NCBI RefSeq assembly: GCF_002939705.1
Contig: NZ_MDCB01000011.1
Span: forward strand, 1 to 64,000
Source: Xanthomonas albilineans
GTDB lineage: Bacteria > Pseudomonadota > Gammaproteobacteria > Xanthomonadales > Xanthomonadaceae
DNA length: 64,000 bases
Direction of reading: 5' to 3'
The notes beneath the pieces were generated by a model. That model saw only the letters and a program-made list of their open reading frames with translations. It was not told the origin of the DNA and searched no databases. How positions within the stretch are numbered: the stretch's first letter is position 1; each line of letters starts with the position of its first letter. Of this stretch, positions 49,724 through 63,769 are shown piece by piece. Both the position numbers and the translations under genes were made by a program.

Positions 49724-51613
49724 ATGAACACCCGCTACAACGCTGCCGACATCGAAGTTCTCTCTGGTCTGGACCCGGTCAAACGCCGGCCCGGCATGTA
49801 CACCGACACCTCACGCCCCAATCATCTGGCGCAAGAGGTCATCGACAACGCCGTGGACGAGGCGCTGGCCGGCCATGCCCGGCACATCGAGGTGACGCTG
49901 TACAAGGACGGCAGTTGCGAAGTCTCCGACGACGGCCGCGGCATGCCGGTGGACATCCACCCGGAAGAAAAAATCTCCGGTGTCGAACTGATCCTCACCC
50001 GGCTGCACGCCGGCGGCAAGTTCAGCGACCGCAACTACACCTTCAGCGGCGGCCTGCATGGCGTCGGTGTCAGCGTGGTCAACGCCCTGTCCAAGCAGGT
50101 GCAACTGTTCATCCGGCGCGAGGGCAACGAGTACCGCATGGCCTTCGCCGACGGCCATGCGGCCTCCAAGCTGGAAATCGTCGGCAGCGTCGGCAAGAAG
50201 AACACCGGCACGCGCTTGCGCTTCTGGCCCGACCCCAACTACTTCGACACACCCAAGTTCGCCGTGCGCGCGCTGCGCCACCTGCTGCGCGCCAAGGCCG
50301 TGCTATGCCCCGGCCTGACCGTCAAGCTGCACGACGAGGCGACAGACGAGCATGACACTTGGCACTTCGAGGATGGTCTGCGCGATTACCTGCGCGGAGA
50401 ACTGGCCGAACGCGAACTACTGCCGGCCGATCTCTTCGTTGGCAGCCTCAAGAAGGACCGCGAAATCGTCGACTGGGCGGCGGCCTGGGTGGTCGATGGC
50501 GACCTGGTGCAGGAGAGCTACGTCAACCTGATTCCCACCGCACAGCACGGCACCCACGTCAACGGCCTGCGCAGCGGCTTGACCGATGCGCTGCGCGAAT
50601 TCTGCGATTTCCGCAACTTACTACCGCGCGGGGTGAAGCTGGCGCCGGAAGACGTGTGGGATCGCGTCGCCTTCGTGCTGTCGCTGAAGATGACCGACCC
50701 GCAGTTCAGCGGGCAAACCAAGGAACGCCTGTCCTCGCGCCAGGCCGCCGGCTTCATCGAGGGCGCCGCGCACGATGCCTTCAGCCTATGGCTGAACCAG
50801 AACGTGGAGACCGGCACGCGCATCGCGCAGATCGCGATCGACCGCGCCAGCGCACGCCTGAAAACCGAAAAGCAGATCACCCGCAAAAAAGTGACCCAGG
50901 GCCCGGCGCTGCCGGGCAAGTTGGCCGACTGCATCAGCCAGGACCTCTCGCGCACCGAATTGTTCCTGGTGGAAGGCGACTCCGCAGGCGGCAGCGCCAG
51001 ACAGGCGCGCGACAAGGACTTCCAAGCGATCCTGCCGTTACGCGGCAAGATCCTCAATACCTGGGAAGTGGCCTCCGGTAGCGTGCTGGCCTCCGAGGAA
51101 GTGCACAATCTGGCCATCGCCATCGGCTGCGACCCGGGCAAGGAAGAGATCGATGGTCTGCGCTATGGCAAGGTGGTGATTCTGGCCGACGCCGACTCCG
51201 ATGGTCTGCACATCGCCACGCTGCTGACGGCACTGTTCCTGCGTCACTTCCCGTCACTGGTCAAGGCCGGCCATGTCTTCGTGGCGATGCCGCCGCTGTT
51301 CCGCGTGGACGTAGGCAAGCAAGTGTTCTACGCGCTGGACGAGGAAGAAAAGCGCTCGCTGCTGGAAAAGATCGCGCGCGAGAAGATCAAGGGCCAAGTC
51401 AGCGTGACCCGCTTCAAGGGCCTGGGCGAGATGAATCCCCAGCAGTTGCGCGAATCCACCATCCACCCCGACACCCGCCGACTGGTGCAATTGACCGTGG
51501 ACGAAGGCGACGACACCCGCGCGTTGATGGACATGCTGCTGGCCAAAAAACGCGCCAGCGACCGCAAGCAATGGCTGGAGACCAAGGGCGACCTGGCGTC
51601 GCTGGATGTCTAG
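49724..51613 (+). CDS. parE: DNA topoisomerase IV subunit B
   Basis: A 629-residue type II topoisomerase ATPase subunit that works with ParC to decatenate chromosomes. The GHKL ATPase site shows EVIDNAVDEALAGHA, SDDGRGMPVDIHP and GGLHGVGVSVVNAL. The Toprim domain contains FLVEGDSAGGSARQARD and ILADADSDGLH. Length and LPLRGKILNTWEV favour ParE over GyrB. ATG at 49724 is chosen; a TTG three codons earlier is open. The Lys normal after EGDSAGGSA is Arg here (residue 426, codon AGA). Confidence 0.95.
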   Translation: MNTRYNAADIEVLSGLDPVKRRPGMYTDTSRPNHLAQEVIDNAVDEALAGHARHIEVTLYKDGSCEVSDDGRGMPVDIHPEEKISGVELILTRLHAGGKFSDRNYTFSGGLHGVGVSVVNALSKQVQLFIRREGNEYRMAFADGHAASKLEIVGSVGKKNTGTRLRFWPDPNYFDTPKFAVRALRHLLRAKAVLCPGLTVKLHDEATDEHDTWHFEDGLRDYLRGELAERELLPADLFVGSLKKDREIVDWAAAWVVDGDLVQESYVNLIPTAQHGTHVNGLRSGLTDALREFCDFRNLLPRGVKLAPEDVWDRVAFVLSLKMTDPQFSGQTKERLSSRQAAGFIEGAAHDAFSLWLNQNVETGTRIAQIAIDRASARLKTEKQITRKKVTQGPALPGKLADCISQDLSRTELFLVEGDSAGGSARQARDKDFQAILPLRGKILNTWEVASGSVLASEEVHNLAIAIGCDPGKEEIDGLRYGKVVILADADSDGLHIATLLTALFLRHFPSLVKAGHVFVAMPPLFRVDVGKQVFYALDEEEKRSLLEKIAREKIKGQVSVTRFKGLGEMNPQQLRESTIHPDTRRLVQLTVDEGDDTRALMDMLLAKKRASDRKQWLETKGDLASLDV

Positions 51614-52851
51614 GCCGCATGATGCACCACTGAAGTGAATGCCAAGTCGCCTGGAGCGCGCAGCAACGACGTTGCGCATCTTGTGTAGACAGGCAGAGTC
51701 CGCCTGGGCGGCGCCACGCAACACCACCTGCGCACCAGCGACAACCAACGCATCGCACTTCAGCAGGGAACAGCACGCTCCAGGAAGCCCAAGTGCGACA
51801 AGCCGCAACGCAGGAACGGATCCTGACGCCACCGTAGCGCGGACATCGTCGCGTGCCACATTGGGATGGACATCGAGACGGAGGGTAAGGACTGTAGAGA
51901 CCAACGACAGTATCGCGCGAGGCGAGGCGAGGCGCTCAAGCGCCCCACCACATCGCCACAGTCAAGGAAACGACAGCGAAACGAAGCGTATTGAAAGCAC
52001 CGTGAGGTGGAACGTACCGCGCGCCCATCTGCCTATAGGCGGCCATTGGGACAGTCGCTCAATTAGTTCCCATGCGCTTCGCACAGACCCAAGACGGCGG
52101 TATACGCAGTCAACACCATCACACATTACAAATGCTCATACGCAAGCTCGGCCGCATGCTGACGCATGCATGAAAACGACGATACCACGCCCGCATCGCG
52201 GACACTGGTCATGCAGAACGCATCCGATCAACGACAAGTCAATCCGACGCGAGGAACAACTCCGCAAAACATCCAGGCGATGTTCAACGAAAACCGCACG
52301 CCAACGAACACAAGATGCGCCGACCAGGGGACAACGTTAGTTTGGAACATCCAGAGTTCACCATTCCTTATCCGCCGGACAGAATCTTGCACAAGGATGA
52401 AAAAGGTGCGCGAACTCACACATCCATCAACGCACCTACATCGCACAACATGTAGATTTGGATTGCCGCCCTAGACTTCGGTAGACAACTCTCATTGATG
52501 CATGAAAACCAGCCACGCACTCCAAGAAACAGACTTTTTTCCTGAGGCGATGTGTGATGGCTGTATATCTCAGCGCCTCTCGATCAACGCAATGATCTTC
52601 ATCATGTTACATGCACTTTGATGAGATAACGTTGACCTTCAACTGTGCGATTGGCGTGTTGCGCAATCAGCGTCAACGCGCCGATTTGCCTAGCTTGTGA
52701 CTTACCCAAAATCATGTAAATGGCGGCTCTGCAATTAATTAAAAATAAGTAAAAACACCCATCATCCCCATCAATTCGCGCCCCTACCGGGCAGCAATTT
52801 CGGTTGTGACCGAGATGCTATGCAAGCGACTCCAACAAGGATGCATATTTC
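51614..52851. other. Long non-coding stretch upstream of the NRPS gene
   Basis: About 1.24 kb with no convincing gene. Open frames in it (for example 51639-52340 on plus) are rich in Arg, Thr and Ser and match no family. The last 370 bases are clearly richer in A and T than the neighbouring genes, with a TTAATTAAAAATAAGTAAAA patch at 52735-52754 about 100 bases before the NRPS start. This is probably the NRPS promoter region together with decayed sequence. Confidence 0.55.
52629..52678. promoter_or_regulatory. Nested dyad upstream of the NRPS gene
   Basis: The outer arms CGTTGAC (52630-52636) and GTCAACG (52672-52678) enclose inner arms GATTG and CAATC, with the exact palindrome TTGCGCAA near the centre. 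It could be an operator or a structured leader for the NRPS transcript. Seen by eye; no function is shown. Confidence 0.3.
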
Positions 52852-55800
52852 ATGAACTCCCCCTACCCCAGCGATTCACTGCCTTTGACCACCAACCAGC
52901 GTGCATTATGGGTGTGGCAAAAAATCCACCCCTATTATCCGATGAATTTAATCGAGGCACTGGAGTTACAAGGACCAATCCAACCCGAACTATTTTTCCA
53001 GGCAGTACGACAGCTTGTACGCGAATGTGAAAATGGCCGGACTTCCATTGTCGAAGAAAACGGCTTGCCGCGGCAATACGTTGCGGCCGAATACCAAGGC
53101 GATTTTCCGTATGTGGATATGCGCGACGCCGCTTCGCCATGGCAGGCAGCCCAGGATTGGATCATGCAGAAATTCGATCGGCCATTTGATTTAGTGCGCG
53201 ATCCGCTATGGCAGTGCGTGCTTTTCCGACTGGACGACGCGCACTACCTATATGCGCAAGGCGGGCACCATCTGATAACCGATGGCTACAACAGCGCGAT
53301 CAGCGTGCAGCGTCTGGCCACGCTGTACAGCAGCTATGTCGCCGGCATCGAACCGCCTGCCAATCCCATTGGCACCATGCGTGACCTGGTCGAACAGGAA
53401 GCCTCCTACCGCGCGTCGGAACGCTACCAACGCGACCGCGAATACTGGATGCAAGCACTGGCCAATCCGTCGCCACCAGTGACGCTGTCGCGCCGTCCCG
53501 GCATGTCGCAATGCCGAGGCTTACTACGCAGCAGGGGGCATCTATCCAGTGATCAGATAACGCGTCTGCACGAACTCGGCGCGCGCTATGCTGCCTCGTT
53601 GCCGCAGGTACTGATCGCCTTGGTCGCCACCTTCTACCATCGCAATACCGGCGCCGAGGATCTCATCATGAACATGCCGGTGACCGGACGCACCCGTCGC
53701 CAGCACCGCGACATACCGGGAATGATGTCCAATGCGGTGCCAATCCGCCTGGCGATGGCACCACAGGTGCCGTTCCATACCCTGTTTCCACAGGTGGCGT
53801 CGGTGGTCAAATCAGCGTTGCGGCATCAACAATATTCCGGCGAAGATATCCATCGCGACCTGGACCTTGCCTACACTAACCAGCAACTGGCAGCGCTGGG
53901 AGTGAACATCGAGCCATTCGATTACGTATTGGACTTCGCTGGTGTCAAGGCGATCCCGCATAACTTATCCAATGGAGGGGCCCATAATCTGACCATCTTC
54001 TTCTATGATCGTGGCGATCATGGCGGCGTTTACTTCGATCTCGATGCCAATCCCGCGCTGTATGCGCAAGAGGAGCTGGACGAACACCGTCGGCGCCTGC
54101 TGCAACTGATCGAATCGGTGCTGGAGGATCCCGGCCAGACATTAGGCCAGCTGGACATCCTGGGTGAGCAGGAGCGCGCGCGCCTGCTCTACGACTGGAA
54201 CCGCACCGATACCCCACTGCCCGAACCGAGCACCCTGCCGCACTGGTTCGCACAGCAGGCCGCCGCCACCCCCAATGCAGCGGCCGTGCGCTACGATGGC
54301 AGGATTCTGGATTACCGTACCTTGCATCAGCGCAGCGCACAACTGGCCGCGCTATGGGTCAAGGAAGGAATATCGGCTGGTCATGTCATCGCGGTGGCCC
54401 TGCCACGCACCGAACAGTTGCTGGTGGTGTTATTGGCGGTAATGTGGAGCGGCGCCACCTATATGCCACTGGATCTGTCCGGACCATCCGAGCGCAATGC
54501 GACGATGCTACGCGAATCCGGCGCGACCGCCATGGTGTGCGAGTCCACGCACTGGCCGCACTATGCGCAAACCGGCCTGATCTGGCTCGACCCACATGCG
54601 ACCACCGACATCACGCCGTTGACCGCGCCGCGTACCTCGGCCGATGGCGCTGCTTACGTGCTTTACACCTCCGGCTCCACCGGACTCCCGAAGGGCGTGG
54701 AAATCAGCCATCATAATTTGGCCAACTTCTTGTTCGCGATGCAGCACGAACTGCAATTGAAGACGAGCGACCGGGTGCTGGCACTAACCACGATCAATTT
54801 TGATATCGCTGCGTTGGAGCTGTATTTGCCGCTAATCTGCGGCGCAAGCTTAGTCATGGCCGAAGATAATATGCAACATGACCCGATCGGTCTGTCCCGA
54901 TTAATCGCCAGCGAACGTATCACCTTGATAGAAGCAACGCCCTCGATGTGGCAAGTGCTGCTCGCCAACGTGGAGTTACCGTTGCAGCATGTGCATGCGC
55001 TGATCGGCGGCGAAGCACTCAACGCTCCGTTGGCGACCCAACTACTGCAGCGTGCCGAGCGGTTGACGCAAATGTACGGCCCCACCGAAACCACGGTCTG
55101 GTCCACCATGATGCCCCTGACCCTGGACGATGTGGCATCAGGGTCACTGCCGATCGGTCGACCGGTGTACAACACGCGCATCTATGTCCTTGATGCCCAA
55201 CAGCAGCCGGTGCCCACCGGCGTCAGCGGCGAGATCTACATCGGCGGCGCCGGCGTAGCAAGAGGCTACCGCAACCGGAAGGAACTCAGTGACGCGCGCT
55301 TCATGCCCGATCCATTCGCCACCGATGGCGGACGCATGTACCGCACCGGCGACCTCGGACGCTGGCGCGAGGATGGGGTACTGGAATTCATCGGCCGCGC
55401 CGATGCGCAATTGAAGATCCGCGGATACCGGGTGGAGCCGGGAGAAGTGGAAGCGGCCTTGCTGCACCATCCGGCGATTGCCTCAGCGGCTGTCCTAGGC
55501 CACCGCGATAGCAATGGCACGATGCACCTGGTGGCCTATCTGGTGGCGGCCGACGGTGCGACGCTGCCGGCACTGGACGCGCTACGCAAGCAGTTGCAAG
55601 GGCGTTTGCCGGACCACATGATGCCCTCCACCTGCATAACCTTGCCGACCTTGCCGCTGACTCCGAACGGCAAGCTCGACCGCAAGGCACTGCCGCTACC
55701 GGAAAAGACCAGCGCACAGCGCTACGTGGCGCCGCGCAACGAACTGGAACAACGCCTGGTCGCGCTATGGCAGAGCATGCTGAAAGTGGAGCGGGTCGGC

Positions 55801-56856
55801 ATCCACGACAACTTCTTCGAACTGGGCGGCAATTCGTTGACCGCAGCCGAACTACTGGCGCGGTTTCCCAGCCAATTCGGGATCGAACTACCGCTGGGCA
55901 GCCTGTTCCAGGCATCCACCGTGGCCGGGCTGGCGACGCTGATCGTCAGTGACGACAACGTACACAGCGATCCGCTCGCCCCCTTGCTGCGGCTACGCAA
56001 GGGCGATGAGAGCAATCCACCGCTATTCTGTATCCATCCGGTGGTCGGGCTGGGTTGGTCGTATTTTGCCTTGCTCGGCCAACTCGATCCAAGTTATCCG
56101 GTCTATGCATTGCAAGCACCGGCCTTGCGTAGTGGCGTGGCATTGCCGGACAGCATCGAGACAATCGCCAGCGAATACTTGCGACGCATCCGCGGCATCC
56201 AGCCACAGGGACCGTATCGGTTACTGGGCTGGTCGCTGGGCGGGTTGATTGCCCACGCAATGACCGCTCAATTGCATGCCGACGGCCAGGAGGTGGAACT
56301 GCTGGTCATGCTTGATGCATACCCTTACCGTCAGCACATCAATGCGCTGGGCGACGATGCGGCCAGGATACAAGCCACCATGGAATTCCTCGGGATCCGC
56401 CTATCTCCCGACCAGCCGGCTCCAGTGCATGTGACCGATCTATCGATGCTGGTGTGCGAACACTATGGCTTGCTGTCGCTGCCGTTGATGGAGCAATTTC
56501 TGAAGAAAGACCCACAGTTGCTGAACCGCATCGCCGTGCTGGCAGATCAGCAAATAGCACTGGCCAGCCACTATCGGCCGCAATGCGTGGACGTGGATGT
56601 GCTGTTCTTCGATGCGGAAATCAAGCCAGCGCTTGACCTGTCGTCGATGCTGGATCAGCGTCCCGATAGCTGGCGCGATTTCGTTGGTGAATTGGACGTG
56701 CATTCGATCCACAGCGACCACCAATCGATGCTGCAGCCTGCGACAGCAGCGCAGATCGCCCGGATCGTGGATGCGCGCCTGCATCGACGCACGCATGCAG
56801 CAGGCAGGCCAGTGATCACAGCGCACCCCGTCAGCGAGATACTGGCCCATGGCTGA
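52852..56856 (+). CDS. Single-module nonribosomal peptide synthetase (C-A-PCP-TE)
   Basis: A 1334-residue NRPS. The condensation domain (about 10-440) has an intact HHLITDG at residues 139-145. The adenylation domain (about 465-950) has YVLYTSGSTGLPKG near 602, MYGPTETTVWS, and the final NGKLDRKAL Lys. The carrier domain has its phosphopantetheine Ser995 in ELGGNSLTA. The thioesterase triad is Ser1128 (GWSLGGL), Asp1155 (MLDAYP) and His1290 (HSDHQSM). Aligning by eye with GrsA gives the pocket D-I-L-E-L-G-M-V-W-K, close to glycine codes. The order equals EntF: the first C domain must take an acyl or aryl donor made elsewhere. Ribosome site AAGGA lies 10 bases upstream. The stop overlaps the glycosyltransferase start by 8 bases. 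No MbtH or phosphopantetheinyl transferase is nearby. Confidence 0.93.
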   Translation: MNSPYPSDSLPLTTNQRALWVWQKIHPYYPMNLIEALELQGPIQPELFFQAVRQLVRECENGRTSIVEENGLPRQYVAAEYQGDFPYVDMRDAASPWQAAQDWIMQKFDRPFDLVRDPLWQCVLFRLDDAHYLYAQGGHHLITDGYNSAISVQRLATLYSSYVAGIEPPANPIGTMRDLVEQEASYRASERYQRDREYWMQALANPSPPVTLSRRPGMSQCRGLLRSRGHLSSDQITRLHELGARYAASLPQVLIALVATFYHRNTGAEDLIMNMPVTGRTRRQHRDIPGMMSNAVPIRLAMAPQVPFHTLFPQVASVVKSALRHQQYSGEDIHRDLDLAYTNQQLAALGVNIEPFDYVLDFAGVKAIPHNLSNGGAHNLTIFFYDRGDHGGVYFDLDANPALYAQEELDEHRRRLLQLIESVLEDPGQTLGQLDILGEQERARLLYDWNRTDTPLPEPSTLPHWFAQQAAATPNAAAVRYDGRILDYRTLHQRSAQLAALWVKEGISAGHVIAVALPRTEQLLVVLLAVMWSGATYMPLDLSGPSERNATMLRESGATAMVCESTHWPHYAQTGLIWLDPHATTDITPLTAPRTSADGAAYVLYTSGSTGLPKGVEISHHNLANFLFAMQHELQLKTSDRVLALTTINFDIAALELYLPLICGASLVMAEDNMQHDPIGLSRLIASERITLIEATPSMWQVLLANVELPLQHVHALIGGEALNAPLATQLLQRAERLTQMYGPTETTVWSTMMPLTLDDVASGSLPIGRPVYNTRIYVLDAQQQPVPTGVSGEIYIGGAGVARGYRNRKELSDARFMPDPFATDGGRMYRTGDLGRWREDGVLEFIGRADAQLKIRGYRVEPGEVEAALLHHPAIASAAVLGHRDSNGTMHLVAYLVAADGATLPALDALRKQLQGRLPDHMMPSTCITLPTLPLTPNGKLDRKALPLPEKTSAQRYVAPRNELEQRLVALWQSMLKVERVGIHDNFFELGGNSLTAAELLARFPSQFGIELPLGSLFQASTVAGLATLIVSDDNVHSDPLAPLLRLRKGDESNPPLFCIHPVVGLGWSYFALLGQLDPSYPVYALQAPALRSGVALPDSIETIASEYLRRIRGIQPQGPYRLLGWSLGGLIAHAMTAQLHADGQEVELLVMLDAYPYRQHINALGDDAARIQATMEFLGIRLSPDQPAPVHVTDLSMLVCEHYGLLSLPLMEQFLKKDPQLLNRIAVLADQQIALASHYRPQCVDVDVLFFDAEIKPALDLSSMLDQRPDSWRDFVGELDVHSIHSDHQSMLQPATAAQIARIVDARLHRRTHAAGRPVITAHPVSEILAHG

Positions 56857-58186
56857 GTCCGGCTCAACCGTCACCATCTTCACCCTGGGTACGCGTGGCG
56901 ATCTCCAGCCACTATTGGCGCTGGGCCAGGGACTACAACAACGTGGCCACACCGTGCGTATCGCCACCAGTGTCAACTTCGCCGAGCAGATTCGTGCGGC
57001 AGGTTTTGTCTTCTTCGAATTGAGCGGCGATTTTCAGTCCACCCTCAACGACAATCCGAACCTGGGCGATCTCGGGCTGGAGATGCTGGCGGTAGCCAGG
57101 ATGTTTCGCGAGCGCATGACATGTTGGGCCAAGGATTGGGCCACGCAAGGGCAATTGGCGTGCAATGGGGCAGACCTGCTGATCGGTGTTGGCAATGCCA
57201 ACCTGCTGGCCAAGCTACTTGGCGAAGCCTTTGCAATTCCGGTGGTGTTCGCGCATTTGATGCCGTTGACGCCTTCCCGGTACTTGCCGCCGATGTCGTT
57301 GACCAGTCGCACTCTGCCAGGGCCTTTGAATATTGCCGCCTATCAAGCGCTGCGCCTTGCGATGTGGCGGATAATGGTGAAGCCCACCATCGATCAATGC
57401 GTGCGTGCGCTTGGGCTGCCTGCTTATCCTTGGTACGGGCCTTACTTCCAGCGACGGTGGGCGCAGATCCGCGTGGTGTATGGCTTCAGCCAGCACGTGG
57501 TATCGCGTCCCGCCGACTGGCCGGATTCGGCACAGATCTGCGGATATTGGATGCTACAGGAACCGCAATGGCAGCCACCTACGGCGTTGCAGGCGTTTCT
57601 CGACGCTGGTCCGGCACCGGTCTATATCGGTTTTGGTAGCATGGTCACCGGGGATCCACAGGCATTGACCGCGACGGTGATCGAAGCGGTACGACGCAGT
57701 GGCCGGCGCGCCATACTTGCCGGCGGCTGGGGTGCGCTGGACACGGCACACGTGGAAGCGGATGCGCAGATCTTTCCGCTGCAACAGGCACCGCACAGTT
57801 GGCTGTTTCCGCGCATGGCCGCGGTTGTGCACCACGGTGGTGCCGGCACCACCGGTGCGGCGGCGGCGGCGGGCGTGCCCTCGGTGGTGGTTCCGTTCTT
57901 CCTCGACCAACCATTTTGGGCACACTGCCTGGCGCGGCAGGGCGTGGCACCACCGGCAATTGTACGTAGAAAAATGCAAGCACAGACCCTGACCGACGCC
58001 ATCAACCAGACAACGCAACCGGCGATGGTGCGAGCAGCGGCGCAACTGGGCCAACGCATCCGTGCCGAGGATGGGGTAACGACGGCTGTGGATTGGCTGG
58101 AGCGCTGGGGCGTTTTGCCCCGACTTCAGCGCGACGATCCGGTGCGCACAGCGCCGCGTCATGCGCTTGACGCGCGACTCCCTTAG
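56849..58186 (+). CDS. GT1 glycosyltransferase, sterol-glucosyltransferase-like
   Basis: A 445-residue GT-B glycosyltransferase. The N-terminal acceptor domain opens with IFTLGTRGDLQPLLALGQGL, the motif of sterol and lipid/macrolide glycosyltransferases. The C-terminal nucleotide-sugar domain has PVYIGFGSMVTGDP, then HHGGAGTTGAAAAAGVPSVV and PFFLDQPFWA. It should move a hexose or deoxyhexose from a nucleotide donor to a lipophilic small molecule in the cytoplasm. Its ATG lies inside the last codons of the NRPS (ATGGCTGA), so translation is coupled and the NRPS product is the likely acceptor. Sugar and acceptor are not known from sequence. Confidence 0.9.
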   Translation: MAESGSTVTIFTLGTRGDLQPLLALGQGLQQRGHTVRIATSVNFAEQIRAAGFVFFELSGDFQSTLNDNPNLGDLGLEMLAVARMFRERMTCWAKDWATQGQLACNGADLLIGVGNANLLAKLLGEAFAIPVVFAHLMPLTPSRYLPPMSLTSRTLPGPLNIAAYQALRLAMWRIMVKPTIDQCVRALGLPAYPWYGPYFQRRWAQIRVVYGFSQHVVSRPADWPDSAQICGYWMLQEPQWQPPTALQAFLDAGPAPVYIGFGSMVTGDPQALTATVIEAVRRSGRRAILAGGWGALDTAHVEADAQIFPLQQAPHSWLFPRMAAVVHHGGAGTTGAAAAAGVPSVVVPFFLDQPFWAHCLARQGVAPPAIVRRKMQAQTLTDAINQTTQPAMVRAAAQLGQRIRAEDGVTTAVDWLERWGVLPRLQRDDPVRTAPRHALDARLP

Positions 58187-58375
58187 CCCCGGTCGCGGAT
58201 GTGTGGTGACGTGCGGCAGGGCTCGGCGGCGTACCGAACCCCGCCGTTCGACGCAAGCAAGCCAAAACAGCTCCCGACGCGCCTGCGTGCGCTCACGCCA
58301 TGCATTGGCTCGATGACCATGTTCATCCCGACAGTGTCTTTATGCACATTCACTGGCGGCACCATCGCGCCTAGG

Positions 58376-59917
58376 ATGCCGTTCCCCATTGCCGAGCGCC
58401 CGCGCGTGTCGAATCCCTCATCGCCCCTGCTCGCCAGCGCGCTATTGCTGGCCATGTTGCCGTTCTCCACCGCGCTCGCCACCGAGACGGCGCACAACAA
58501 TGAGAAGTCCGATGCAGCCGAGCATGCCGACGCGGACAAGCCCGCGCCGCTGCCAGCCGATGCGCAAACCAGCCAGACCACCCAGTTGAACGGCAAGACA
58601 CTGCATTATAAGGTCAAGGTCGGCACGCTCCCGATCAAAGACAGCCAAGGCAAAATCATCGCCGACGTGGTGTACACCGCTTACACCATGGACGGCAAGG
58701 ACCGACCGGTCACCTTCGCGCTGAACGGCGGCCCCGGAGCGGCCTCGGTCTATCTGAATCTGGGCGCGATCGGCCCCAAGGTGGTCACTTTCGGCAGCGA
58801 GGGCGACAGTACCTCGGCACCGGCCCAGCTGCACGACAACCCTGGCACCTGGCTGGATTTCACCGACCTGGTGTTCATCGATCCGGTCGGCACGGGTTTC
58901 AGTCGCTCCCGCATCGGCGAGGAACAGGCCAAGAAACAGTTCTATACCCCCAAGGCCGACGTCGAGTATCTGTCGCGCACCATCTACGACTGGCTGCTGA
59001 AAAACCAGCGCCTGCAATCGCGCAAGTACCTGGTCGGCGAAAGCTATGGCGGCTTCCGCGGCCCACGCATCACCCATTATCTACAGACCCGGCTCGGGGT
59101 GGGGATGAATGGCGTGGTGCTGGTCTCGCCATATCTGAACCCGATGGACGACAACGGCGACGTCTCGCCGCTGCCGTGGATGCTGACCCTACCCTCGATC
59201 ACAGCCGCGCATCTGGAGCGCGAAGGACGCCTGACGCCCGAGGCAATGCACAAGGTGATCGAATACACCCGCGGCGATTACGTCACTGCGCTGCTGCGCG
59301 GACGTTCGGACCCGGCGGGCAGCGCACGCATGATCGAGCAGGTGACCGCAATGACGGGACTGGATCCGGTTTTCGTGCGCCGCGCAGGCGGTCGCCTGGA
59401 AACCCAAGCCTATCTGCGCGAGGTGTTCCGCGACAAAGCCGAACTCGGCAGCCGCTACGATTCCAACGTCACCGCCTTCGACCCGTTCCCTAACGCACCC
59501 GAGCAGCGTTCCAACGATCCAATACTGGACAGCATCATTGCTCCCACCACCACCGCGATGGTCGACTTCGTGACCCGTGTAGTCGGCTGGAAAGTGGATG
59601 CGCGCTACCATGCGCTGAATTACGACTTGAACGCACTGTGGGATTGGAACGACGATCCACACAAAGGCTCAGTGACCGAACTGCGACAGATGGTGGCGAT
59701 CGATCCCAAACTGCGCGTGCTGATCGTGCACGGCTGGAACGACCTCTCCTGCCCCTTCATGGGTTCGGTGCTGATCGTGGACCAGATGCCGGTGATGGGC
59801 AATGACCCGAACCGGGTTCAGGTCAAGAATTACCCCGGCGGCCACATGTTCTACAACCGCGCCGATAGCCAGCGCGCGCTAAGGCAGGATGTGATGGCGA
59901 TGTATAAGGCCAATTGA
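58376..59917 (+). CDS. Serine carboxypeptidase, family S10, exported
   Basis: A 513-residue alpha/beta-hydrolase of peptidase family S10. A signal-like segment (SSPLLASALLLAMLPFSTAL) is followed by a low-complexity acidic stretch. The oxyanion-hole motif LNGGPGAASVYLNLG is near residue 120. The triad is Ser in LVGESYGGFRGP (about 222), Asp in VHGWNDLSCPF (about 455) and His in YPGGHMFYN (about 488). It removes C-terminal residues from peptides in the periplasm or outside the cell. Start choice is uncertain: ATG 58376 is used; ATGs at 58313 and 58319 and a GTG at 58406 are open. It is 189 bases after the glycosyltransferase, so a link to that pair is possible but not shown. Confidence 0.87.
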   Translation: MPFPIAERPRVSNPSSPLLASALLLAMLPFSTALATETAHNNEKSDAAEHADADKPAPLPADAQTSQTTQLNGKTLHYKVKVGTLPIKDSQGKIIADVVYTAYTMDGKDRPVTFALNGGPGAASVYLNLGAIGPKVVTFGSEGDSTSAPAQLHDNPGTWLDFTDLVFIDPVGTGFSRSRIGEEQAKKQFYTPKADVEYLSRTIYDWLLKNQRLQSRKYLVGESYGGFRGPRITHYLQTRLGVGMNGVVLVSPYLNPMDDNGDVSPLPWMLTLPSITAAHLEREGRLTPEAMHKVIEYTRGDYVTALLRGRSDPAGSARMIEQVTAMTGLDPVFVRRAGGRLETQAYLREVFRDKAELGSRYDSNVTAFDPFPNAPEQRSNDPILDSIIAPTTTAMVDFVTRVVGWKVDARYHALNYDLNALWDWNDDPHKGSVTELRQMVAIDPKLRVLIVHGWNDLSCPFMGSVLIVDQMPVMGNDPNRVQVKNYPGGHMFYNRADSQRALRQDVMAMYKAN

Positions 59918-62311: not shown

Positions 62312-63769
62312 TCAGGGAAGCGACAACAAGCCTTCCGCATCCACTGCACGCAACGGATACTCCCAGTCCCCCATCAGCGCCAGGTACAGCAGTTTCTCGA
62401 ACTCGGCCGCCACACGCCGCATCACCGCATCCGGATCGGGAATCAGCCGCGCATCGCCGATCAGGCCGAAATGCACGCGATGGTTGTAGCTCATGATCGA
62501 CACGCCAACGCCGATCGAGCCGGTCTGCGGCACCCAGAACATCATCTCGCGCACCCCACTCCCCGCCAGATACAGCGGTTGCTGTGGCCCCGGCACGTTG
62601 GTTGCCACCGTGGTCGCTTTGCGGCTGAACAAATCCAGCGCCGCCGACTGCAACGCCGCCGGCGCCATCCCCACCGCAGCCAACAACCCGAACACCACCA
62701 TCGCCTGACGCGACTGCTTGAGTTGTTGCATCGACGCGGCGACACACTGCAGCCGCCGCACCGGATTGGCTTCGCCCACCGGCAAATCCAGGAACACCAG
62801 ACCGAAGTGGTTACCGAGCTTGCGCGCGTGTTCAAGCGGACGCAGATTGACCGGCACCGTGGCGCGCAGGGTCACTCCCTCCAGGCGTTCGCCGCGTTCG
62901 AGCATGTAGTCGCGCAACGCACCGGCCATGGTCGCCATCAGCACATCGTTGACCGTGCAATCGCAAGCGCGGCCAACTGCCTTCACTTCGCTCAAGTCCA
63001 GCGGCGCGGCCCAGGCCACACGCTTGCTGACGCCTAGACGACCGCGCAGCAGCGTGGGCGGATCGTCGGACAACAGCAGCGCGTTGACCAGTTCGCGGCC
63101 GATCAGCCCGCCTTCGCGCGCCAGTATGGTCGGCAGGTTAGGATCCTGCGCCATTGCCCGACCTTTATCGAGCATGCGCCCGCCCAGCTTGAGATAACGA
63201 TCCATCGCACCGACCCGGCGCACCACCTCCTTGCCATCGTCTTTCAGCCAGGCGCGGCCAAGTTGTGCCGACGGCTCCGGCACGCGTTGCGTATCAGTCA
63301 GCGACAACAGCACCTGCACCAGAGCGATACCGTCGGCATAGCTGTGGTGGATACGCACCACCAAAGCCGAACCGCCCTCGTAGCGCTCGATCAAATGGAA
63401 TTGCCACAGCGGCTTGGTTTTGTCCAAGGACGTAGACGCCATCTGCCCGGCAAACCGCTCCAGCGCTTTCTTCTGCCCACGCCCAGGCAATGCCGACAGA
63501 CGCACGTGCCAATCCAAGTCGAAATCGTCGTCGCGTTGCCAATAGGCCCCGGTGGCGGCCTCCACCGGCTTTTGCAGAAAACGTGGAAACGCCAGGAAAC
63601 GTTTGCGCACCAATTGTTTGAGCCGCTCTAACGTCAATGGCTCGTCCAACATCAGCACGCCGGTGATCATCATCGGATTGGTCGGCCGGTCCATCCGCAA
63701 CCAGGCGGTATCCACGCGGGACATCGGTTCGCGCTGCGAATTACGGCGAGCTGATCTGCTGGCGGCCAT
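62312..63769 (-). CDS. Wax ester synthase/diacylglycerol acyltransferase (WS/DGAT) family protein
   Basis: A 485-residue acyltransferase of the WS/DGAT group. The catalytic HHxxxDG is present as RIHHSYADGIAL (about residue 140). Other family pieces are RVDTAWLRMDRPTNPM at the N-terminus, NDVLMATMAGALR, and the C-terminal ATNVPGPQQPLYLAG. Members esterify fatty alcohols or diacylglycerol with acyl-CoA to make storage lipid, but many bacterial copies have unknown acceptors. It is related in fold to NRPS condensation domains. The next gene on the same strand upstream is the photolyase. Confidence 0.9.
   Translation of the reverse strand: MAASRSARRNSQREPMSRVDTAWLRMDRPTNPMMITGVLMLDEPLTLERLKQLVRKRFLAFPRFLQKPVEAATGAYWQRDDDFDLDWHVRLSALPGRGQKKALERFAGQMASTSLDKTKPLWQFHLIERYEGGSALVVRIHHSYADGIALVQVLLSLTDTQRVPEPSAQLGRAWLKDDGKEVVRRVGAMDRYLKLGGRMLDKGRAMAQDPNLPTILAREGGLIGRELVNALLLSDDPPTLLRGRLGVSKRVAWAAPLDLSEVKAVGRACDCTVNDVLMATMAGALRDYMLERGERLEGVTLRATVPVNLRPLEHARKLGNHFGLVFLDLPVGEANPVRRLQCVAASMQQLKQSRQAMVVFGLLAAVGMAPAALQSAALDLFSRKATTVATNVPGPQQPLYLAGSGVREMMFWVPQTGSIGVGVSIMSYNHRVHFGLIGDARLIPDPDAVMRRVAAEFEKLLYLALMGDWEYPLRAVDAEGLLSLP

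What the first reader, a model, noticed from the sequence alone, without database searches (positions are those of the whole stretch)
52852..58186. NRPS-glycosyltransferase cassette likely to make a glycosylated N-acyl amino acid
The sequence shows one complete C-A-PCP-TE module whose stop overlaps (ATGGCTGA) the start of a GT1 glycosyltransferase with the GTRGDLQP motif of lipid/sterol glycosyltransferases. All catalytic residues are present. From known NRPS logic, a leading condensation domain needs a donor made in trans. The expected product is a one-residue acyl or aryl amide that is then glycosylated. I do not know a characterised product with exactly this two-gene arrangement.
Basis: partly seen in the sequence, partly recalled or inferred. 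Interest (0 to 1): 0.75.

Follow-up and report, generated by a model that had tools for sequence, protein, structure and literature searches.

The report
Single-module NRPS coupled to glycosyltransferase
A bacterial gene pair, already noted in print, that most likely joins a fatty acid to a small amino acid and then adds a sugar, giving a soap-like envelope glycolipid similar to one known from an oil-degrading marine bacterium; this copy looks re-tuned, and its product has not been identified.

Summary
In detail: 52852-56856 is one complete C-A-PCP-TE module whose stop overlaps by 8 bp the start of a GT1 glycosyltransferase (56849-58186); the catalytic residues are present. The pair is not new. 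Royer et al. 2013 (PMC3849588) describe it in Xanthomonas albilineans as XALc_1145/XALc_1144, with a glycine-coded sister pair XALc_0364/0365 (also in this genome, contig C21) and homologues ABO_1784/1783 in Alcanivorax borkumensis, which makes a glucosyl-tetra(3-hydroxyacyl)-glycine. In Acidobacteriota and some relatives it is followed by a RhlC-type rhamnosyltransferase and C-like acyltransferases, which points to a rhamnolipid-like glycolipid. This copy is inserted between parE and a peptidase gene, sits on a long branch, and alone among the homologues examined has Glu instead of Gln in the substrate pocket (DILELGMVWK). Best reading: it makes a glycosylated N-(3-hydroxyacyl)-amino acid, probably a variant of the glycine glycolipid. 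The chemistry is inferred, not shown.

The parts
52852..56856 (+). NRPS gene, one module C-A-PCP-TE, 1334 aa (orthologue of XALc_1145)
   Evidence: matched to Royer 2013 by architecture, 8-bp overlap, non-Gly code and by the sister copy
52873..54189 (+). Condensation domain, starter type; HHLITDG at 53266-53286
54247..55674 (+). Adenylation domain, pocket code DILELGMVWK; Glu694 (pocket position 278) at 54931-54933
55750..55944 (+). Carrier domain (PCP); phosphopantetheine Ser995 at 55834-55836
56017..56775 (+). Type I thioesterase domain; Ser1128 (56233-56235), Asp1155 (56314-56316), His1290 (56719-56721)
56849..56856 (+). 8-bp stop/start overlap ATGGCTGA, likely translational coupling
56849..58186 (+). 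GT1-family glycosyltransferase, 445 aa (orthologue of XALc_1144)
52837..52841 (+). Shine-Dalgarno-like AAGGA, 10 nt before the NRPS ATG
   Evidence: read from the sequence
51614..58311 (.). Stretch absent from the parE-peptidase junction of the nearest relative (G012): apparent insertion carrying about 1.2 kb of low-GC DNA and the pair

Best explanation
A lipo-initiating one-module NRPS plus a lipid glycosyltransferase. An Sfp-type PPTase encoded elsewhere arms the PCP. The A domain loads glycine or another small amino acid. The starter C domain takes a 3-hydroxyacyl-CoA or -ACP made in trans and acylates the amine. The TE releases the N-(3-hydroxyacyl)-amino acid; further 3-hydroxyacyl units may be added, as in Alcanivorax. 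The GT, translated from the overlapping start, puts a hexose on the free 3-hydroxyl. The product would be an anionic amino-acid-capped glycolipid of the cell envelope, of the glycine-glucolipid kind. Shown here: gene structure, intact motifs, purifying selection, C-domain class, co-conservation, the altered A code. Inferred: every chemical step, the sugar, chain length, amino acid and location.
For: Intact domains and motifs. Among solved structures the C domain is closest to 7c1k/7c1h/7c1p (228-233 bits; recalled to be the RzmA starter domain) and CDA synthetase I (177; recalled to be lipo-initiating), ahead of EntF (139), ObiF1 (132) and the rest (94 or less). Tree: pair C domains plus those two starters 96/93, EntF outside. 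Royer 2013 also places these C domains with starters. 34 of the 35 pair-type NRPSs aligned have a Gln278 code, nearly all of the Gly type. The Alcanivorax product is glucosyl-tetra(3-hydroxyacyl)-glycine and its GT ABO_1783 is called similar to RhlB; Royer 2013 reports ABO_1784/1783 as the same overlapping arrangement with a PPTase next door. In Acidobacteriota and some relatives the pair is followed by a TIGR01556-type rhamnosyltransferase and C-like acyltransferases. The GT's best solved relatives are sterol 3-beta-glucosyltransferases. Two PF01648 proteins are encoded in the genome, of Sfp-like size.
Against: I found no product reported for a Xanthomonas pair (passages). I could not obtain the Alcanivorax sequences, so that homology rests on the 2013 paper. 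A 2023 paper says the Alcanivorax pathway has not been elucidated. The immediate neighbours, parE and a serine-carboxypeptidase-like gene, offer no acyl donor. In 3 of 61 genomes the GT stands without the NRPS in the DNA fetched, so it can act on something else. The window A code departs from the Gly type at one charged position. Full-length NCBIfam scores favour MxcG and EntF, though far under cut-off, and in the smaller C-domain tree the order of EntF, starters and pair was unresolved. The rhamnosyltransferase and acyltransferases were not found in the Xanthomonas loci. TIGR01556 was tested on one protein of this kind and scored below its cut-off (149.5 against 200.55 bits).
Confidence: 0.66

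Rival explanations
1. The TE dimerises or cyclises the N-(3-hydroxyacyl)-amino acid as in serrawettin W1 (SwrW, also C-A-T-TE), and the GT decorates that product.
For: Same domain order; serrawettin W1 has two Ser and two 3-hydroxydecanoic acids (PMC7767323 passages). The TE has a full triad.
Against: A ring would use up the 3-hydroxyls that the GT needs; the best-matching known product is linear; the A codes are Gly-like, not Ser-like (the Ser code is recalled).
Confidence: 0.09
2. The GT is a self-protection or inactivation enzyme for the NRPS product rather than a step in making it.
For: Its best NCBIfam match is a rifamycin-inactivating GT, far under cut-off (112 against 800 bits), then macrolide GTs.
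Against: The pairing, and in most loci the overlap, are conserved in two phyla; other loci add a second sugar transferase and acyltransferases.
Confidence: 0.07
3. Aryl-initiating, EntF/MxcG-like module making an aryl-amino acid (siderophore-like).
For: NCBIfam's best full-length matches are MxcG (706.7 bits) and EntF (652 bits), both far under their cut-offs of 2300 and 2400; EntF's C domain is the next branch outside the pair and starters.
Against: EntF's C domain lies outside the pair-plus-starter group (96/93); no aryl-acid gene was recognised among the neighbours annotated; the pocket is Gly-like.
Confidence: 0.05
4. The window copy is a drifting, near-redundant paralogue with little or no function.
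For: Long branch in both genes (0.42 against 0.16 in the NRPS tree, 0.37 against 0.14 in the GT tree); 16 of 301 otherwise invariant residues changed, against 7 of 292 in its sister G003; related NRPS genes are interrupted in some Xanthomonas.
Against: Both frames open, catalytic residues kept, dN/dS 0.28 and 0.23; the paralogue at C21 is also intact.
Confidence: 0.13

Closest known systems
XALc_1145/XALc_1144 of Xanthomonas albilineans GPE PC73 (Royer et al. 2013, PMC3849588)
   Same: One C-A-PCP-TE module, 8-bp overlap with a GT, starter C domain, non-standard A code, sister pair with Gly code in the same genome.
   Different: Paper gives 4,011 bp, here 4,005 bp; paper gives a 4-bp overlap for the sister pair, here 8 bp. 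Very likely another strain of the same species (inference).
ABO_1784/ABO_1783 (+ PPTase ABO_1782) of Alcanivorax borkumensis SK2; product class glycine-glucolipid
   Same: Same gene order and overlap as reported in print; product has acyl chain, amino acid in amide linkage and sugar.
   Different: No PPTase beside the pair here; chain length, sugar and amino acid here unknown; sequences not compared by me.
RhlB/RhlC rhamnolipid pathway
   Same: ABO_1783 is described as similar to RhlB; a TIGR01556-type GT2 (RhlC membership recalled) lies next to the pair in Acidobacteriota and some relatives.
   Different: The carboxyl end is amide-linked to an amino acid by an NRPS; no GT2 found in the Xanthomonas loci; RhlA was not searched for.
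SwrW, serrawettin W1 synthetase
   Same: C-A-T-TE enzyme joining a 3-hydroxy acid to one amino acid.
   Different: Ser product and symmetric double unit; overlapping GT not mentioned in the passages seen; sequence not compared.
EntF / MxcG
   Same: C-A-PCP-TE order (EntF); best full-length NCBIfam scores.
   Different: Scores far under cut-off; EntF's C domain outside the pair-plus-starter group.

Membership tests
Short NRPS-GT pair of Royer 2013 (XALc_1145/1144 type) | One C-A-PCP-TE module | tested here: met
Short NRPS-GT pair of Royer 2013 (XALc_1145/1144 type) | 3' end overlaps a glycosyltransferase gene | tested here: met
Short NRPS-GT pair of Royer 2013 (XALc_1145/1144 type) | C domain of starter type | tested here: met
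Short NRPS-GT pair of Royer 2013 (XALc_1145/1144 type) | PPTase for PCP domains in the genome | tested here: met
   two PF01648 hits over cut-off in ORFs of 209 and 278 aa; Sfp type by size is an inference; neither adjacent to the pair
Glycine-glucolipid synthase (Alcanivorax type) | Glycine-specific A domain code | tested here: inconclusive
   DILELGMVWK; differs from the Gly-type DILQLGLIWK at 278 (Q to E), 322 and 330; E278 seen in no other homologue examined
Glycine-glucolipid synthase (Alcanivorax type) | Sequence homology with ABO_1783/1784 | not tested
   no Alcanivorax sequence was obtained; homology taken
Glycine-glucolipid synthase (Alcanivorax type) | Product is a glucosyl-(3-hydroxyacyl)n-glycine | not testable with these tools
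   needs lipid chemistry
EntF/aryl-initiating module | C domain grouping with EntF rather than with acyl starters | tested here: not met
   EntF falls outside the pair-plus-starter group (96/93); the 30-row tree did not resolve this
Chain-elongating module fed by another module | C domain grouping with domains that follow a PCP | tested here: not met
   all 22 other C domains of this genome in the tree, most of them following a PCP, fall outside (99/95)
SwrW-type serrawettin synthetase | Ser-specific A domain and cyclic double-unit product | tested here: inconclusive
   A code is Gly-like rather than Ser-like (Ser code recalled); product not testable; SwrW sequence not compared

The most novel reading that the evidence does not exclude
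The pair is the core of a cross-phylum family of glyco-lipo-amino-acid pathways whose loci vary in A-domain code (Gly type, DIFQLTLVWK, DVLQLALVYK, DILELGMVWK) and in optional rhamnosyltransferase and acyltransferase genes; the window copy is a neofunctionalised paralogue that caps its glycolipid with a different small amino acid and probably a different acyl chain, so one strain makes two distinct amino-acid glycolipids.
Probability: 0.33. Interest if true: 0.58.

Novelty: already known. Interest (0 to 1): 0.38.

Why it matters
If right, an orphan pair noted in 2013 gets a concrete chemical hypothesis: an amino-acid-capped, rhamnolipid-like envelope glycolipid, checkable by lipid mass spectrometry. 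It also offers a candidate gene set for the Alcanivorax glycine-glucolipid, whose pathway a 2023 paper calls not elucidated, and shows related gene sets in Acidobacteriota and Lysobacter-like bacteria. The divergent copy here would be a natural case of a glycolipid pathway changing its amino acid.

Tried and rejected
Rejected: an elongation module missing its partner (C-domain tree); EntF-like aryl initiation; the Acyl_transf_3 gene downstream of the sister pair as part of the system, since it is in 19 of 20 genus genomes while the GT is in only 3 of the same 20; the peptidase gene after the pair as a partner, since it is in 20 of 20 genus genomes and its match lies 36 bases from the end of the parE match in the nearest relative, which lacks the pair there. 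Led nowhere: Rfam, 0 matches in 51500-58500; promoter scan, 0 found where shuffles give 3.3; the upstream 1.2 kb has no second copy in the genome and no match in the loci tested; repeats around the insertion, only weak chance-like pairs; plasmid search for the GT, 39 records, at most 43% identity in the 20 listed; Alcanivorax was sought by searching three unnamed orders, 53 + 40 + 5 genomes, no match, and none of those orders is known to hold Alcanivorax. The four distant GT1 hits of the class sample show no NRPS neighbour in the stretches read. The first C-domain tree used wrong strands for minus-strand loci and is discarded; replace it. The EntF code printed looks misaligned at its ninth position (judged from the recalled Ser code) and is not used.
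Full report
What is there. The + strand carries a 1334-aa NRPS (52852-56856) and a 445-aa GT1 glycosyltransferase (56849-58186) overlapping by ATGGCTGA. Pfam gives Condensation, AMP-binding with its C-terminal part, PP-binding and Thioesterase in order, and Glyco_transf_28 / EryCIII-like_C on the GT. NCBIfam's best scores for the NRPS are MxcG and EntF, both far below cut-off; for the GT a rifamycin GT, also far below.

Already in print. Royer et al. 2013 (PMC3849588; I saw the passages returned) describe two short NRPS genes in X. albilineans GPE PC73, XALc_0364 (4,047 bp, Gly signature, 4-bp overlap) and XALc_1145 (4,011 bp, unknown signature, 8-bp overlap), each one C-A-PCP-TE module overlapping a GT gene, with starter-type C domains; [quoted passage not shown] PMC4584326 and PMC4408752 (passages) repeat that no precise function is attributed. 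XALc_1145, XALc_1144 or XALc_0365 occur in 2 papers of the held library.

Which pair is this. The host genome (3.68 Mb, 148 contigs) holds two GT copies. The other, on contig C21, has NRPS L025:2937-6962 and GT L025:6955-8283, code DILQLGLIWK, and is 93% (NRPS) and 89% (GT) identical to the pair of a relative, G012. G012's contig has the length of the Xanthomonas sp. GPE 39 record and its NRPS is identical to that record's; PMC4584326 says GPE 39 has only one of the two, the orthologue of XALc_0364/0365. So C21 is the XALc_0364 pair and the window the XALc_1145 pair (inference). Small differences in length and in one overlap are listed under Closest known systems.

Conservation. The search for related loci with the GT gave 72 loci. 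Of the 36 with at least 50% identity over at least 397 residues, 31 have the NRPS as one open frame just upstream (30 of 1,317 to 1,506 aa; one, L047, only 1,106 aa), 3 have it interrupted (L045, L049, L057), 1 is cut by the contig end with the TE visible (L072), and 1 lacks it (L041, Lysobacter antibioticus). None of the other 36 shows NRPS domains in the DNA held, but six of those hold under 1 kb upstream, and two (L110, L111) are short fragments of high identity. In two of the 31 the GT frame is short (L059, L062). In 395 genomes drawn from the family, 61 in 6 of 54 genera hold the GT at E 1e-90. I fetched all 58 that are not in the window's own genus: 55 have NRPS C and TE domains beside the GT, one of them (L174) without a detectable A domain, and 3 (L126, L132, L136) have no NRPS in the DNA fetched. 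With G000, G003 and G012 that is 58 of 61. The sets largely overlap. In the own genus only 3 of 20 genomes have the GT at E 1e-40. The 8-bp overlap is present in the four own-genus pairs read and in 27 of the 31 loci. In one search, 34 of 48 NRPS frames read have a start codon at the same place (33 ATG, 1 GTG; the GT frame was not checked there); the other 10 of the 58 were not read as one frame, for lack of NRPS (3), interruption (L174, L175, L178) or because my filter did not catch them (L130, L144, L152, L179).

Starter C domain. Against solved structures the window C domain scores 228-233 bits with 7c1k/7c1h/7c1p, 177 with CDA synthetase I, 139 with EntF, 132 with ObiF1 and 94 or less with the rest of the 44 listed; that the first are RzmA and that both are lipo-initiating is recalled. 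In a 34-row tree (9 pair C domains, 2 solved starters, EntF, 22 other C domains of this genome; 10 of the genome's 34 hits are partial, split or weak and were left out) the pair domains form one group (100/100) and join the two starters (96/93); EntF comes next (99/95 for these twelve), and the 22 others lie outside. The earlier 30-row tree left the order of EntF, starters and pair open, and both carry long-branch warnings.

Substrate pocket. Reading the code by alignment (mapping to GrsA positions recalled), 34 of the 35 pair-type NRPSs have Gln at position 278 and the window alone has Glu: DILELGMVWK. Two of the 35 rows come from one genome (L035, L053). In the family set (53 rows with 5 references) it is again the only Glu, while Lysobacter-like genomes show DIFQLTLVWK (5) and DVLQLALVYK (4), so the family does change its code. 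The window NRPS changes 16 of 301 residues that are invariant in the other 33 (L047 left out): 8 of 98 in C, 6 of 146 in A, 1 of 17 in PCP, 1 of 40 in TE. Controls in the same call: its sister G003 changes 7 of 292, L040 11 of 296, L073 11 of 296, C21 1 of 286, and the more distant Luteimonas L071 also 16 of 301. Both window genes sit on long branches, while dN/dS stays low. This fits altered function better than decay, but the Luteimonas control shows that the number of changes is not exceptional; for that reason I lowered the novel case from 0.35 to 0.33.

Extended gene sets. In Granulicella (L042), three Bryobacterales (L048 cut by its contig end, L051, L054), an Acidobacteriaceae MAG (L073) and Luteimonas (L071) the pair is followed by a C/PapA-like acyltransferase (two in L073), a GT2, and, where the contig goes on, one to three further C-like acyltransferases; Luteimonas has a penicillin-amidase-like gene in between. 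The fourth Bryobacterales locus (L062) ends too soon to tell. The GT2 of L042 matches TIGR01556 rhamnosyltransferase (149.5 bits, below the cut-off of 200.55); the others are 58-71% identical to it. A RhlC-type GT2 beside a GT whose Alcanivorax homologue is described as similar to RhlB argues for a rhamnolipid-like head group on a 3-hydroxyacyl tail (inference).

Known product. A. borkumensis makes glucosyl-tetra(3-hydroxyacyl)-glycine, with minor alanine forms and sugar-free trimer and tetramer precursors; the authors speculate that glycine is joined first and glucose last (PMC10684412, PMC10710537, passages). That order fits an NRPS followed by a GT. PMC10710537 says the pathway is not elucidated. 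My searches for a paper tying the NRPS to this lipid gave none in what I saw: passages of PMC3849588, PMC10710537, PMC10684412, PMC6669457 and PMC6223728, and only listings of the other papers; one paper I recalled is not held, and subscription papers are mostly not held.

Locus history. In G012, the parE and peptidase-gene matches lie 36 bases apart where the window has 51614-58311, and in G003 386 bases; in two other species tested the gap is longer (about 2.6 and 1.4 kb) with no match to the pair. The window copy is nearest to G003's pair (NRPS 71%, GT 73% identical), but G003's pair sits beside the speA-like gene (named by eye) and the Acyl_transf_3 gene, where the C21 pair also sits. So the window copy was moved or acquired (inference).

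Verdict.

Noticed in passing
L025:2937-8283 (host genome contig C21): Second NRPS-GT pair of the same kind with a standard Gly-type code; its NRPS C-terminus has a (Pro-Thr)n repeat that may vary in length between strains.
   Followed up: yes
L042:8357-14859, L051, L054, L071, L073, L123, L124, L130, L133, L134, L143, L144, L147: Pair followed by C/PapA-like acyltransferases and a RhlC-type rhamnosyltransferase: a larger candidate glycolipid gene set in Acidobacteriota and Lysobacter-like bacteria.
   Followed up: partly
L041 (Lysobacter antibioticus; L126 appears to be the same record), L132, L136: Same GT1-acyltransferase-GT2-acyltransferase set but with no NRPS in the DNA held upstream.
   Followed up: partly
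L125, L127, L128, L139, L142 and L123, L124, L133, L134: Pair-type NRPSs with other A codes (DIFQLTLVWK and DVLQLALVYK), so the amino acid may vary across the family.
   Followed up: no
   Followed up: no
hit H46, plasmid record NZ_CP020970.1 (Xanthomonas phaseoli, 18 kb): A C domain 46.8% identical to the window's over 70% of its length lies on a small plasmid record.
   Followed up: no
window 51614-52851: About 1.2 kb of low-GC DNA before the NRPS with no second copy in the genome; one ORF in it (51639-52340) has no PHROGs match.
   Followed up: partly
window 62312-63769 (-): A protein that looks like a wax-ester-synthase/DGAT-type acyltransferase (HHxxxDG-like motif, weak Condensation hit); name given by eye, not checked.
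   Followed up: no
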